From positions 1 through 64,000 of the forward strand of contig JAQZBN010000006.1 of the NCBI GenBank assembly GCA_029238935.1: 64,000 bases of DNA, read 5' to 3'. The DNA is from Herbinix sp. (GTDB lineage Bacteria; Bacillota; Clostridia; Lachnospirales; Lachnospiraceae). A program made the position numbers and the translations under genes. The notes under the pieces are model-generated. The model made no database searches and was not told the DNA's origin. It saw only the letters and a list, made by a program, of their open reading frames with translations. Below, one piece after another: positions 29,371 through 34,190 of this stretch; the stretch's first letter is position 1, and the number at the start of each line of letters is the position of its first letter.

Positions 29371-29434
29371 TATTTATATGTAACGTAATAAGGTTTTCAG
29401 ACACTAACATATGGAAAGGGGGAACAACAGAGCG

Positions 29435-29911
29435 ATGGATTCCATAGAGCAGATATATATGAAATATGCGAAAACCGTATATGGATTTCTTTTAAGTAAA
29501 ACACAGAATCCGGATTTGGCTGAGGAATTGACCCAGGATACCTTTTATCAGGCTGTGAAAAGTATCAAGAACTTTAAGGGGAAAAGTAATGTATCCACTT
29601 GGCTTTGCGGGATAGCAAAAAATCTTTGGTTTGAATACCTAAGAAAAAATAAAAATCAAGTTTCGTTGGAAGAAGCATCAGAAATAGCAGTTGATTCCGC
29701 TGAGACAGTATTTTTTCATACTTGGAATAATGTAGAGGTGTTAAAGGTATTGCATAATTTAAAGGATCCTATGAGGGAAGTAATGTATTTAAGACTGATT
29801 GGAAATCTTACCTTCGGTCAGATCGGAGAAATCATGGGGAAAAGTGATAATTGGGCTAGAGTGACGTATTATCGAGGAAAAGAAATTATAATTAAGGAGG
29901 CTAAAATTTAA
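29435..29911 (+). CDS. ECF-type RNA polymerase sigma factor
   Basis: ATG 29435 lies 12 bases after AAAGGGGG and yields 158 residues; an in-frame ATG at 29411 is upstream of that site. Region 2 is YMKYAKTVYGFLLSKT to FLRKNK-like EYLRKNK, with the ELTQDTFYQAVKSI block; region 4 is LRLIGNLTFGQIGEIMGKSDNWARVTYYRGKE. It directs polymerase to a private promoter set. The stop shares a base with the ATG of the anti-sigma gene, so the two are coupled and probably form a sigma/anti-sigma pair. Confidence 0.92.
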   Translation: MDSIEQIYMKYAKTVYGFLLSKTQNPDLAEELTQDTFYQAVKSIKNFKGKSNVSTWLCGIAKNLWFEYLRKNKNQVSLEEASEIAVDSAETVFFHTWNNVEVLKVLHNLKDPMREVMYLRLIGNLTFGQIGEIMGKSDNWARVTYYRGKEIIIKEAKI

Positions 29912-30906
29912 TGGAACATAGAATTCCTTGCCAAATTGTACAGGATTTATTGCCACTATATGTTGAAGAACTGACATCAGAGTTTACAAATACAGAGATC
30001 AAGAAACATATTGAAGTATGTGTTGAATGTAAATCCCATTATAATGATATGAAAAAGACAATTCATAATGAAAATGAAAATAATCAAGAAGATTTAGGTA
30101 AAGAGATTAACTATCTAAAAAAGATTAAGAGAAATACCAATCAAAAGGTGTTTATTGGAATATCCATAGCGTTATTGATCTGTATTACGGCTATTGCTAT
30201 TAAATTATATGTGATTGGATTTCCAACGGATTCTTACTATATTACCTATATGGATGGAGATGAGGAGAATGTTAATTTTGGTGGAGCACTTTATGACATG
30301 TCCTATACGTATAAAGGTTATCGTACGAAAATGAGAGAGGATGGAAAAGAAGAGATTGTAATCTATGCAGCTTTGGCATCCTTTTGGAGGCGGGATATTG
30401 CATTTAATATCGATATCAACAGGAAAGATGTAAAGTCGGAACTATATATTAACGGGAATATAGTTAAACCGGACGGAACTGTTATTACTAAATTAGCAAA
30501 TGACTTATATCACGCAAAAAATAAATATATAGGGGATATGGCTTCCAATGGGAAAATCGTATCAATTCTTGGGATTACTAATACATTAGGTAACTTTAAA
30601 AATTCCTTACAAACTTCTACAGAGCCGTATGGATGGACATTGGAGTTTGTACAAGGTACATCGAATTCAGTAATGTTTGATGAAAGGATGAAAAATTATG
30701 CCTGTGTATTAATAGCATTAATAGATAATTTAGGGGAAGTCGATTGGAACTATACAGTAGAGACAGAAGAGGCTGCAATAGAGCGAAGTAATAATTTAAC
30801 AGAAAAACAATGTACTGATTATGTTGGTGTTCCGATTAAAGAATTCTCTGAAAGCCCAGAAAAAGTCCAGGATTTATTAGATTTCTTAAGTATAAGAAAT
30901 CAATGA
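29911..30906 (+). CDS. zinc-finger (ZAS) transmembrane anti-sigma factor
   Basis: The 331-residue protein has an N-terminal zf-HC2 domain: Cys7, then His33, Cys37 and Cys40 in HIEVCVEC, the spacing of anti-sigma zinc fingers. A lysine-rich stretch leads to one membrane helix (about 80-102, VFIGISIALLICITAIAIKLY). About 225 residues then lie outside the cell; that domain is not recognised. It should hold the sigma factor encoded just upstream until a surface signal arrives. GGAGG sits in the sigma gene 3' end. No site-2 protease motif is seen. Confidence 0.85.
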   Translation: MEHRIPCQIVQDLLPLYVEELTSEFTNTEIKKHIEVCVECKSHYNDMKKTIHNENENNQEDLGKEINYLKKIKRNTNQKVFIGISIALLICITAIAIKLYVIGFPTDSYYITYMDGDEENVNFGGALYDMSYTYKGYRTKMREDGKEEIVIYAALASFWRRDIAFNIDINRKDVKSELYINGNIVKPDGTVITKLANDLYHAKNKYIGDMASNGKIVSILGITNTLGNFKNSLQTSTEPYGWTLEFVQGTSNSVMFDERMKNYACVLIALIDNLGEVDWNYTVETEEAAIERSNNLTEKQCTDYVGVPIKEFSESPEKVQDLLDFLSIRNQ

Positions 30907-31023
30907 GTATTTCATAAGGATTTTTCGTCTTTAGAAAAAATAATATAAATAAGTGTAACCTTTTCTTTATAACTGCTACTAAAGGGTAACTCATGAGTAA
31001 ATAAAGGAAAGGAAACTGATAAA

Positions 31024-31788
31024 ATGAAAAACGAGCAAATATGTTCTATGGTTAAGGATTTAACTCCTATTTATTATAGTAATCAGACTTCAGCTTTCAC
31101 AAAAGAAACGGTTGATGAGCATTTAAGTCAATGCGAAGAATGTAACGTATATTATAAGGCGTTTCAGCAAAACAAAATGGCTGCAACGGAAGAGATAGCA
31201 AAGGAAAAAACGAATTTCTTTGCGAAAGCTGCAGTAAGGATGCGAAACAGGAAAAGAAAGCAGTTCATGTTAATCACAGGATTAATGCTAGCATTCTTCA
31301 TATGTTGGAATAGTACATTCAAGAATACCATTATGGTATCATCTAGTATGGAACCTACCATTGGTATGAGCCAACATTGTCTAATCAATAAACTGGCATA
31401 TACATTCCAAAAGCCGCAGAGTGGAGATATCGTATATCATTGGGCAGATGATATCAGCGGTTATGATATGAATCGTATTGTAGGTGTTCCAGGGGATACG
31501 ATATTGATTGAAAATGGAGTTCTATATGTAGATAATGAAGTGTTTGAAGAATATAAGGGTAAGATTGTGAAGACGAATTCTTCCGTGGAAAGTTATTCCA
31601 TCACTCTTAATGAAGGAGAGTATTTTGTCATGGGTGATAATGTCGAAAATTCTTATGATAGTCGCCTTTATGGAGCTATATTAGAGGATGACATTCAGGG
31701 AAAATTCATGTTAAAATACAAATGGAGAAATTGGTTTGTACAAAGCGAAATAAGAAGTACAGATGATGTAGAGGGAAATGAGGAATAA
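31024..31788 (+). CDS. anti-sigma zinc finger fused to a signal peptidase I-like domain
   Basis: Residues 1-50 repeat the ZAS finger of the preceding gene, with Cys7, His33, Cys37 and Cys40 at identical positions (HLSQCEEC). A helix at about 80-96 spans the membrane. Residues 100-235 are S26 signal peptidase-like: MVSSSMEPT with Ser108 at the nucleophile position, GDIVYHW, NRIVGVPGD and MGDNVENSYDSRLYG. The usual catalytic lysine before Arg in the KRxxGxPGD box is Asn150, so ordinary Ser-Lys catalysis is probably lost. It ends three bases before the next sigma gene, whose anti-sigma factor it may be. Confidence 0.85.
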   Translation: MKNEQICSMVKDLTPIYYSNQTSAFTKETVDEHLSQCEECNVYYKAFQQNKMAATEEIAKEKTNFFAKAAVRMRNRKRKQFMLITGLMLAFFICWNSTFKNTIMVSSSMEPTIGMSQHCLINKLAYTFQKPQSGDIVYHWADDISGYDMNRIVGVPGDTILIENGVLYVDNEVFEEYKGKIVKTNSSVESYSITLNEGEYFVMGDNVENSYDSRLYGAILEDDIQGKFMLKYKWRNWFVQSEIRSTDDVEGNEE

Positions 31789-31791
31789 TGG

Positions 31792-32304
31792 ATGATAGAG
31801 AAAGAATTCGTAGCATTATACGAGACATATTCTGAATTTCTGTTCCACTATATAGGTAAGCTAGTTAATTATCAGGATGATTTGGCTGAGGAATTAACCC
31901 AGGAGACCTTTTACCAGATCTTTATTTCTTTTGACCGGTTTCGAGGAGAATGTGATATCAAGACATGGATGTGCCAGATCGCTAAAAACACCTGTTATCG
32001 TCAATTTCGAAAAAATAAAAGATTAAAATGTATGTCTGATTTATCGGATTTTACAGATGTTTTGGAATGTTTGGAAAAATCACCGGAAGATATATTCGTT
32101 CAAAAAGAACAAAGAAATAAGTTAATACAACTCATTATGCAGCTAAAACCCAAATATAGGGATTTATTGCTGATGTACTATTTTGATGAATTATCAATCA
32201 GGGAGATAGCAAATCAAATGAGAATTACTGAGAATGATGTAAAAGTAGTACTCCATAGAGGGAAAAAGACATTAAAGAAAAAATTAGGAAGTATTACTTT
32301 ATAG
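31792..32304 (+). CDS. ECF-type RNA polymerase sigma factor
   Basis: A 170-residue sigma factor: region 2 with ELTQETFYQIFISFDRFRGECDIKTWMCQIAKN, region 4 with YFDELSIREIANQMRITENDVKVVLHRGKKTLK. It starts three bases after the zinc finger-peptidase gene, with GAGGAA overlapping that gene's end. Unlike the first pair, the putative anti-sigma gene precedes the sigma gene. No autoregulatory promoter pair could be picked by eye. A terminator follows 145 bases downstream. Confidence 0.9.
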   Translation: MIEKEFVALYETYSEFLFHYIGKLVNYQDDLAEELTQETFYQIFISFDRFRGECDIKTWMCQIAKNTCYRQFRKNKRLKCMSDLSDFTDVLECLEKSPEDIFVQKEQRNKLIQLIMQLKPKYRDLLLMYYFDELSIREIANQMRITENDVKVVLHRGKKTLKKKLGSITL

Positions 32305-32609: not shown

Positions 32610-34190
32610 ATGGATCAACGAATAGAGGATCAATTAAATATACTGACGCAAGAATATTTAAGTTCATTTCTTGCCTTTTGCTTAAAACGTACCAGTAACA
32701 TCAAAGAAGCGGAAGAGGTTGCCCAGGAAATAGCCTATCAGTGTGTTAAGTCCATATACTCGGGTAAGAAAATTAATAATCTTAATACTTATCTATGGAG
32801 CATTGCGCACAACACCTATAAACGATGGCTTAACCGGAAGAAAGGTGAGGTCTTTAGAGAGAATATCGACTTATTAGGTGAGATAATTCCATCGGATTCT
32901 GATCTAACTACAGAGATTATAAAATTAGATGAAATGCGAGAGGTTCGGCATACCATTGCGTTGTTGTCTCATTACTATCGAGATGTACTGGTAAGTTTCT
33001 ATTTTGATGAATTAACGATTGGTCAGATCGCCATGAAATATAACCTCACGGAAGAAATGGTCAAGTATTACCTTCAAAAAGGAAGAGTAAAATTTAAGGA
33101 GGCTTACACAATGTCATTGGAGTATGGAGAAAAGAGTTATAAAGCATCAGATTTTTCAATATTTTATAGTGGTATCGATTTTTCCTATGTTAATGTGTGG
33201 CAGTTATTTAAACGAAAACTGCCTGCGCAAATTGCTCTTATTTGTTATGATGCACCTAAAACGATAAGTGAGATTGCATTGGAGACAGGAACACCATCTA
33301 TCTATCTTGAAGATGAAATTAAGTTATTAATTGAAGGTGGTGTTATGATATCACCGGTGAAGAATAAATACAGAACAAATTTTTATATCATGAGAAAGAA
33401 CAGTAGAAAACAATTAGAAGAGCAGTTTGAAAAAATGCATCAGAGTTATATTCCAAAGGTTATTGATAAATTTCTTGCTTATTTACCTGAACTGAAGAGA
33501 ACTAAAATGTTTAAGCATCCGGTAAAGGACGAAAGATATGCATGGATGGTGTTCCAGTTTGTAAATCCGATACCAATGGATGATCATAAGCTAAGGATTG
33601 ATGATAATGATTATCCTGTTATACTATCCTGTGGAGCCAGAGCTTTTATCTTTGCAGAAGAAACAACGATTCCTGAGTGGGCGGGAGGTACATCACCAAC
33701 TAAGTTGGAAGATGTAATTGTATATCCAACCGATATTGGTGTCTTTGGTAAGTATCGACACCAGGACAACTTAAGGAGTAAAGAGAAGTGTCAGGCTCTA
33801 TACGACATTTATATGGGAAACACGAAAGAAGGCGATAAAGAATTATACGCTTCGCTCATCAAGGAGGGCTATGCAATAAAGCAGGATGGAAGCCTATATT
33901 GTGAACTGGCAATGATCGATGTTGAGGTCAGAAATATCTTTCAGAAGATTAATAATGAGCTTCTTCGGGAAGCACAGGATGAGGGCAATGCAATATATCA
34001 GAATATCTGCCGTATGATTAAGAATACAATACCAGATCATTTAAATGAATACGCAAATGGCTATGCGAAAACAGAAACACTCAATTACGCACAAGTATTG
34101 TTTGGAAAAGGATTATATGAAAAAGGTATGATATCAATACCGGAAGAAGGAGATTTAACTCCGGTTGCATGTTATCTGTCAATAAAATAA
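32610..34190 (+). CDS. ECF-like sigma factor with large C-terminal extension
   Basis: Residues 1-170 form a sigma factor: region 2 FLAFCLKRTSNIKEAEEVAQ to IAHNTYKRWLNRKK, and region 4 SHYYRDVLVSFYFDELTIGQIAMKYNLTEEMVKYYLQKGR. The remaining 356 residues are unusual. About 200-285 look like a winged helix (PKTISEIALETGTPSIYLEDEI then an LIEGG turn). After that comes a soluble alpha-beta domain with no recognised family, rich in aromatic residues (YAWMVFQF, WAGGTSPTK). No membrane segment occurs, so regulation may be built in through ligand sensing. It is monocistronic, with its own promoter and terminator. Confidence 0.82.
   Translation: MDQRIEDQLNILTQEYLSSFLAFCLKRTSNIKEAEEVAQEIAYQCVKSIYSGKKINNLNTYLWSIAHNTYKRWLNRKKGEVFRENIDLLGEIIPSDSDLTTEIIKLDEMREVRHTIALLSHYYRDVLVSFYFDELTIGQIAMKYNLTEEMVKYYLQKGRVKFKEAYTMSLEYGEKSYKASDFSIFYSGIDFSYVNVWQLFKRKLPAQIALICYDAPKTISEIALETGTPSIYLEDEIKLLIEGGVMISPVKNKYRTNFYIMRKNSRKQLEEQFEKMHQSYIPKVIDKFLAYLPELKRTKMFKHPVKDERYAWMVFQFVNPIPMDDHKLRIDDNDYPVILSCGARAFIFAEETTIPEWAGGTSPTKLEDVIVYPTDIGVFGKYRHQDNLRSKEKCQALYDIYMGNTKEGDKELYASLIKEGYAIKQDGSLYCELAMIDVEVRNIFQKINNELLREAQDEGNAIYQNICRMIKNTIPDHLNEYANGYAKTETLNYAQVLFGKGLYEKGMISIPEEGDLTPVACYLSIK

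What the first reader, a model, noticed from the sequence alone, without database searches (positions are those of the whole stretch)
31024..31788. Anti-sigma zinc finger fused to a signal peptidase-like domain with catalytic Lys replaced by Asn
The S26 nucleophile region SSSMEPT and the GDN...DSR box are intact, but the general-base lysine of the KR-xx-G-x-PGD box is Asn150. The domain may therefore be a peptide-binding sensor for secretion stress rather than a protease, or use a different base. A fused sensor/anti-sigma for Sec export load would be new to me.
Basis: partly seen in the sequence, partly recalled or inferred. Interest (0 to 1): 0.8.

Follow-up and report, generated by a model that had tools for sequence, protein, structure and literature searches.

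The report
Sigma-factor brake with altered signal peptidase
A membrane protein that probably holds a gene-switching factor in check carries on its outer side a signal peptidase, the enzyme that trims exported proteins, with part of its cutting machinery lost, so it may have been turned from an enzyme into a sensor.

Summary
In detail: 31024-31788 encodes 254 aa with a zinc-finger anti-sigma N-terminus, one transmembrane helix and a type I signal peptidase (S26) domain; nucleophile Ser108 is present and the base lysine is Asn150. It is not a one-off. Six genomes found here carry the same fusion, each beside an ECF sigma gene, and 5 of 6 lack one or both catalytic residues (Ser/Lys columns: S/N window, S/Y, G/N, G/K, S/V; one intact S/K), against 6 of 84 stand-alone S26 ORFs. 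Other S26-invariant residues stay. Five operons share one promoter, TGTAAC-N17-TACTAA, which elsewhere in those genomes occurs only at the control rate: autoregulation is likely. The AlphaFold model (pLDDT 92.7) matches pseudo-signal-peptidase SipA best. Most likely it is a transmembrane anti-sigma whose external sensor is a degenerate signal peptidase that binds but does not cut. The ligand (preproteins, SPase inhibitor or partner protease) is inferred. No regulon beyond the operon was found; one relative's operon includes an S/K signal peptidase. His139, at a position that by recall packs against the lost Lys, is an unexcluded substitute base. None of the papers listed in ten searches of an open-licence library is about such a fusion.

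The parts
30954..30982 (+). ECF-type promoter of the operon, TGTAAC-N17-TACTAA
   Evidence: Present upstream of the first gene in 5 of 6 loci; 9 exact sites in five genomes, 5 of them at these operons; reversed control 4
31024..31788 (+). Fused protein, 254 aa: anti-sigma N-terminus, TM helix, signal peptidase-like external domain
   Evidence: ORF, Pfam, AlphaFold model pLDDT 92.7
31042..31143 (+). zf-HC2 zinc-finger anti-sigma region (residues 7-40; C7, H33, C37, C40)
31264..31317 (+). Transmembrane helix (about residues 81-98) after an Arg/Lys-rich stretch (72-79): N-terminus inside, S26 domain outside (inference)
   Evidence: Sequence; helix 38-98 in the model
31318..31719 (+). S26 signal peptidase-like domain (residues 99-232)
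31345..31347 (+). Ser108, nucleophile position (present)
31438..31440 (+). His139, in place of a Phe in 75 of 78 S/K homologues; possible substitute base
31471..31473 (+). Asn150 (AAT) at the general-base Lys position
31633..31665 (+). Box E GDNVENSYDSR (residues 204-214)
31792..32304 (+). ECF sigma factor, partner by adjacency
   Evidence: Sigma70_r2 and r4_2, TIGR02937 106 bits; clade with four other fused-partner sigmas, support 0.991

Best explanation
It is a single-pass transmembrane anti-sigma factor. The cytoplasmic zinc-finger helices hold the neighbouring ECF sigma factor; the external sensor is a type I signal peptidase domain that keeps the fold and most of its conserved boxes but has lost efficient catalysis (here the base lysine). 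A ligand that binds the old signal-peptide cleft, most plausibly uncut signal peptides of preproteins, possibly an SPase inhibitor or a partner SPase, changes the domain and exposes the juxtamembrane region to regulated intramembrane proteolysis; freed sigma then transcribes its own operon from TGTAAC-N17-TACTAA. Shown: architecture by sequence and model, loss of catalytic residues in the family, adjacency to sigma, shared promoter sequence. Inferred: sigma binding, topology, loss of activity, ligand, proteolytic release, autoregulation, target genes.
For: Six fused proteins in six genomes, each beside an ECF sigma-like gene. Ser/Lys columns S/N, S/Y, G/N, G/K, S/V, S/K: 1 of 6 intact against 78 of 84 stand-alone S26 ORFs (Fisher p 6e-5, rows related and not a random sample). 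M109, Y126, R151, P156, G204, D205, D212, S213, R214 are kept in 6 of 6 while the catalytic columns vary. Careful S26 tree: fused group 95/93, end branches 1.56-3.09 for the broken members, 0.76 for the intact L071. Best solved fold match is SipA, an SPase-like protein without detectable peptidase activity and with a retained cleft (PMC4049620 passages). Shared operon promoter. In L039 an S/K signal peptidase gene follows with a gap of 23 bases. Precedents: signal peptidases are site-1 proteases for RsiV and RsiP (PMC8844934, abstract and section 15); S. aureus senses preprotein accumulation through AyrA/AyrR (PMC5727409 abstract).
Against: One member (L071) keeps Ser and Lys, so the family is not uniformly broken. 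The window's Asn150 is one base change from Lys. No target gene beyond the operon was found with strict or relaxed promoter patterns; of the six loci only L039 has another S26 gene near the operon in the stretches searched. Ligand, zinc, sigma binding and proteolysis are untested. Window zf-HC2 is under Pfam's cut-off. L108's sigma falls in another clade and its upstream site differs. Long branches meet in the tree.
Confidence: 0.5

Rival explanations
1. The domain is still a peptidase: a substitute base (His139, less likely Lys183) or a low-activity Ser108 lets it cut itself, a second anti-sigma copy or a specific substrate, and that cut is the site-1 step that frees sigma.
For: Ser108 and the other boxes are kept in the window; His139 replaces a Phe present in 75 of 78 S/K homologues, at a position that by recall packs against the catalytic Lys; Lys183 stands in an Ile/Met column; L071 has an intact dyad.
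Against: No other fused member has His at 139 (L, Y, L, A, F) or Lys at 183 (L, I, I, T, V); two members lack the Ser (L037, L039); no Ala-X-Ala-like site is evident in residues 99-108 by eye.
Confidence: 0.17
2. The S26 domain is a docking partner rather than a ligand sensor: it pairs with an active signal peptidase, which then acts as the site-1 protease on the anti-sigma, as SipP does on RsiP.
For: L039's operon encodes an S/K signal peptidase directly downstream; SPases are site-1 proteases for RsiV and RsiP.
Against: In the stretches searched around the other five operons no further S26 gene was found; SPase-SPase pairing is not tested here.
Confidence: 0.15
3. The S26 part only serves as a membrane anchor and spacer and is decaying without function.
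For: Long branches and varied losses at the catalytic positions.
Against: Nine S26-conserved residues named above stay in 6 of 6 although the relatives are only 30-37% identical to the window protein; six intact reading frames; high-confidence SPase fold.
Confidence: 0.1
4. Asn150 in the window is a read or assembly error and the protein has a normal Ser-Lys dyad.
For: AAT differs from a Lys codon by one base; the assembly has 157 contigs and 8% contamination.
Against: Four other members lost Ser and/or Lys; Phe139 next to the Lys is also replaced in the window; long branch.
Confidence: 0.05

Closest known systems
SipA of Streptococcus pyogenes (PDB 4n31), signal peptidase-like pilus assembly factor
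   Different: Works in pilus assembly, no anti-sigma domain known; Ser to Asp and Lys to Gly there, Lys to Asn here with Ser kept (passages)
RsiW/RsiV/RsiP-type transmembrane anti-sigma factors of Bacilli
   Same: N-terminal anti-sigma region, TM helix, external part, sigma gene adjacent (recalled); SPase is the site-1 protease for RsiV and RsiP
   Different: Their external parts are not signal peptidases (recalled); here the sensor itself descends from one
Type I signal peptidases SpsB, LepB, Sip (S26A)
   Same: Fold and conserved boxes; N-terminal TM with domain outside (recalled)
   Different: Base Lys replaced by Asn150; fused to an anti-sigma domain
ayrRABC secretion-stress response of Staphylococcus aureus
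   Same: Does the task proposed here, sensing preprotein accumulation when SPase is short (abstract)
   Different: AyrR derepression relayed by AyrA, not an ECF sigma with an SPase-derived sensor

Membership tests
Type I signal peptidase (S26A) | S26 fold and sequence family | tested here: met
Type I signal peptidase (S26A) | Ser-Lys catalytic dyad | tested here: not met
   Ser108 present, Lys position is Asn150
Type I signal peptidase (S26A) | Peptidase activity on signal peptides | not testable with these tools
   Needs an assay
Class I zinc-binding anti-sigma factor (ZAS, zf-HC2) | H-x3-C-x2-C with an upstream Cys (motif recalled) | tested here: met
   C7, H33, C37, C40 invariant in 6 of 6
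Class I zinc-binding anti-sigma factor (ZAS, zf-HC2) | Pfam zf-HC2 over the curated cut-off | tested here: not met
   Window 16.1 bits, cut-off 22.2; family best E 2.5e-9
Class I zinc-binding anti-sigma factor (ZAS, zf-HC2) | Adjacent ECF sigma gene | tested here: met
   6 of 6 loci; Pfam run on the window's sigma only, the other five by alignment
Class I zinc-binding anti-sigma factor (ZAS, zf-HC2) | Binds and inhibits the sigma | not testable with these tools
   Needs an assay
SipA-like pseudo-signal peptidase | SPase fold without both catalytic residues | tested here: not met
   Window keeps Ser; of six members only L039 lacks both
SipA-like pseudo-signal peptidase | Pilin/sortase gene context | tested here: not met
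   None among nine window proteins (the query and eight neighbours) scanned with Pfam
RsiV-type lysozyme-sensing anti-sigma | DUF4179/DUF3298 external region (DUF3298 recalled) | tested here: not met
   Pfam at E<=0.1 lists only S26, zf-HC2 and a weak FdhE_C
RsiV/RsiP-type regulated intramembrane proteolysis | Site-1 then site-2 cleavage | not tested
   Inference only

The most novel reading that the evidence does not exclude
A signal peptidase has been turned, with at least three separate losses of catalytic residues on the best tree if residues do not revert, into the receptor of an ECF sigma system, so that the cell reads signal-peptide (export) load with a non-cutting copy of the very enzyme that processes it and answers with its own sigma factor.
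Probability: 0.4. Interest if true: 0.8.

Novelty: new variant of a known kind. Interest (0 to 1): 0.62.

Why it matters
I know of few cases in which it is understood how Gram-positive bacteria gauge signal peptidase capacity (AyrRA in S. aureus is one). A receptor built from the peptidase itself would give a direct, testable sensor of preprotein load or of SPase inhibitors, would be a clear case of an enzyme becoming a sensor with one relative (L071) still carrying the intact dyad, and would add a sensor domain to the transmembrane anti-sigma factors.

Tried and rejected
Chance or misreading: rejected. Substitute base: within residues 99-234 the window's Lys and His are K100, H118, K123, K130, H139, K178, K180, K183, K227, K231, K233. 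K123 and K227 are Lys in 61 and 52 of 78 S/K homologues; H139 (Phe in 75 of 78) and K183 (Ile or Met in 71 of 78) stand where those homologues have other residues, K178 in a mixed Tyr/Val/Ile column. H139 and K183 are therefore not excluded. A wider regulon: of the four non-operon strict sites three lie inside genes and one is intergenic but points antisense into the gene before it; of seven non-operon relaxed hits one is that same site and the other six lie inside genes or at a gene junction on the opposite strand. The relaxed reversed control gave 4 hits against 12, and in the window's genome 0 against 6, an excess that I set aside only because of where the sites lie. The own-genome SPases at C43, C60 and C96 show no TGTAAC-N17-TACTAA within 300 bases upstream. 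Neighbourhoods of L071 and L108 (16 kb each): I recognised no secretion gene by eye; no further S26 gene there by profile. Borderline hits of the family search that began before the S26 domain (G320, G356, G224, G307) were fetched: none has the zinc finger. Plasmids: 145 records with matches, none covering 80% of the query. Viral contigs: 27 loci, listed match ranges start at residue 22 of the contig at the earliest in DNA and at query residue 51 or later, so none reaches the zinc finger. Two origins of the fusion (five, and L108 apart): holding the five together without L108 is not rejected, p-AU 0.42; unresolved. The promoter/terminator scan gave counts near the shuffle level. Literature: ten searches; no paper listed is, by title and start of abstract, on an anti-sigma fused to a signal peptidase domain; three lists were cut (one search shows 15 of 179, 12 of 20, 8 of 477), and the library holds open-licence papers only. 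Recalled, not from a call: the contact of E. coli Phe133 with Lys145, the matching of LepB to window residues, and the AXA-like nature of SPase sites beyond.

Full report
What is there. Pfam gives Peptidase_S26 at residues 82-232 with 101.3 bits and NCBIfam gives signal peptidase I with 107 bits; zf-HC2 at residues 7-40 scores 16.1 bits, below its cut-off. Ser108 in SSSMEPT and the GDNVENSYDSR box are present; the lysine of the KRxxGxPGD box is Asn150, codon AAT. A run rich in Arg and Lys at 72-79 precedes the hydrophobic stretch 81-98, so by the positive-inside rule the zinc finger lies inside and the S26 domain outside (inference). The sigma gene follows after a gap of three bases.

It is a family. 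A search of 99 relatives (the window's own genome included) found two further full-length homologues. A scan of named genome contigs gave 33 loci, of which three are full-length fusions (L037 Lachnoclostridium phytofermentans KNHs2131, L038 Sporanaerobium hydrogeniformans XHS1971, L039 the MAG Lachnoclostridium sp. UBA1308). Profile searches showed the full-length fusion in 3 of 397 genomes of the family (one is L071 from G125), 2 of 392 of the order (six further genomes passed the threshold with matches that begin at profile position 60 or later), 2 of 391 of the class (one is L108 from G905), 2 of 34 of the genus, 1 of 1 and 1 of 5 in two further genera and 2 of 398 of the phylum. These sets overlap, and all but the two further genera include the window's own genome. 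In some searches at most six candidates per genome were scored and long lists were cut, so the counts are lower bounds. Four lower-scoring hits of the family search that began early in the profile were fetched and lack the zinc finger. Six distinct genomes in all carry it; it is rare. All six proteins match both Pfam families at E up to 0.1, and each gene sits beside an ECF sigma-like gene.

Catalytic residues. Read off one profile alignment, the Ser/Lys columns are S/N (window), S/Y (L038), G/N (L039), G/K (L037), S/V (L108, which also has MTGY in place of MEPT) and S/K (L071). Of 91 S26 ORFs with letters in both columns, seven are the six fused ones plus a cut copy of the window gene, which I dropped; of the remaining 84 stand-alone ORFs 78 are S/K, four A/R and two A/K. 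One of six against 78 of 84 intact gives Fisher p 6e-5. The stand-alone set consists of good matches to the family profile, not a random sample, and the rows are related, so the p value is only a guide. The fused proteins keep M109, Y126, R151, P156, G204, D205, D212, S213 and R214 in 6 of 6, while the Ser column is kept in 4 of 6 and the Lys column in 2 of 6. Column 139 is Phe in 75 of the 78 S/K ORFs; it is L, Y, H, L, A in the five broken fused proteins and Phe in the intact L071, as if the surroundings of the Lys had changed together with it (that Phe touches the Lys is recalled). His139 in the window must therefore be weighed as a possible base; Lys183, in a column that is Ile or Met in 71 of 78, less so, since its place relative to Ser108 is unknown to me.

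Trees. In the careful S26 tree (46 rows chosen from 72 of the quick tree: all fused, all odd, 34 others) the six fused domains form one group with 95/93 support; the broken members have end branches of 1.56 to 3.09, the intact L071 0.76, median of all rows 0.51 (the quick tree shows the same group at 88). Read by residue and without reversals, that tree needs at least three losses (Lys in window/L038/L108, Ser in L037, both in L039); coded only as intact or broken, the program counts seven changes on the whole tree, two of which I place in the fused group. The inner branches there are weak, long branches meet, and the tool warns of it. The partner sigmas of the five other-than-L108 loci form a clade at 0.991, but L108's sigma lies elsewhere, so L108 may be a separate fusion or a change of partner.

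Promoter. Upstream of the first gene of the operon, five of six loci carry TGTAAC-N17-TACTAA (window 30954-30982); L108 has a different site. In the five genomes together the exact pattern occurs 9 times, five of them at these operons; the reversed control occurs 4 times. Three of the four others lie inside genes and one is intergenic but antisense to the gene it points at. A relaxed pattern gives 12 hits, control 4: the five operons, one of the strict sites again, and six others inside genes or at a junction on the opposite strand. In the window's own genome the relaxed count is 6 against a control of 0. The operon therefore looks autoregulated by its own sigma (inference), with no wider regulon seen at this stringency. 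In L039 an S/K signal peptidase gene follows the fused gene after 23 bases; its nearest row in the quick tree is the window genome's SPase on contig C43, which has no such promoter.

Mechanism. The best reading is a transmembrane anti-sigma whose sensor is a degenerate signal peptidase that binds without cutting. Signal peptidases already act as site-1 proteases on RsiV and RsiP (PMC8844934, abstract and section 15), and S. aureus derepresses ayrRABC when a subset of preproteins accumulates (PMC5727409, abstract). A receptor derived from the peptidase would bring sensing and substrate together. The ligand, the release step and the targets are inference. Rivals are residual or substituted catalysis (His139), docking of an active SPase, a mere anchor, and a read error at one codon.

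Novelty. Pseudo-signal peptidases (SipA) and transmembrane zinc-finger anti-sigmas are each known; on their fusion none of the papers listed in ten searches bears by title and start of abstract (three lists cut). In the paper that classifies class I anti-sigmas (PMC7406223, passages) the term signal peptidase occurs once, in the reference list. I rate it a new variant of a known kind.

Noticed in passing
window 29411-30906: A second ECF sigma and zf-HC2 anti-sigma pair with a DUF4825 domain (76.8 bits) lies just upstream; TGTAAC-N17-CACTAA precedes its sigma gene by 32 bases, so the two systems may share promoters or cross-talk.
   Followed up: partly
window 32610-34190: A 526 aa protein with an ECF-like sigma N-terminus and a long C-terminal part for which Pfam gives no family over its cut-off.
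   Followed up: no
L075 1438-2067, L105 1468-2076, L077 1405-2001, L096 2969-3550; L084 1456-2061, L088 1348-1992; L163 2923-3501: Stand-alone signal peptidase homologues with Ala at the nucleophile and Arg (four) or Lys (two) at the base, and one (L163) with Ser at the base position: likely inactive S26 proteins of this order.
   Followed up: partly
L039 4283-4798: An S/K signal peptidase gene 23 bases downstream of the fused gene in the UBA1308 MAG, probably co-transcribed; it could be a target of the sigma or the site-1 protease.
   Followed up: partly
L071 1501-2199: The only fused member with an intact Ser-Lys dyad and the shortest branch; its PGD box reads PEE. A natural comparison for whether the fusion began as an active enzyme.
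   Followed up: partly
L164 870-2189: A 439 aa protein that by eye joins an S26 signal peptidase to an N-acetylmuramoyl-L-alanine amidase-like C-terminus.
   Followed up: no
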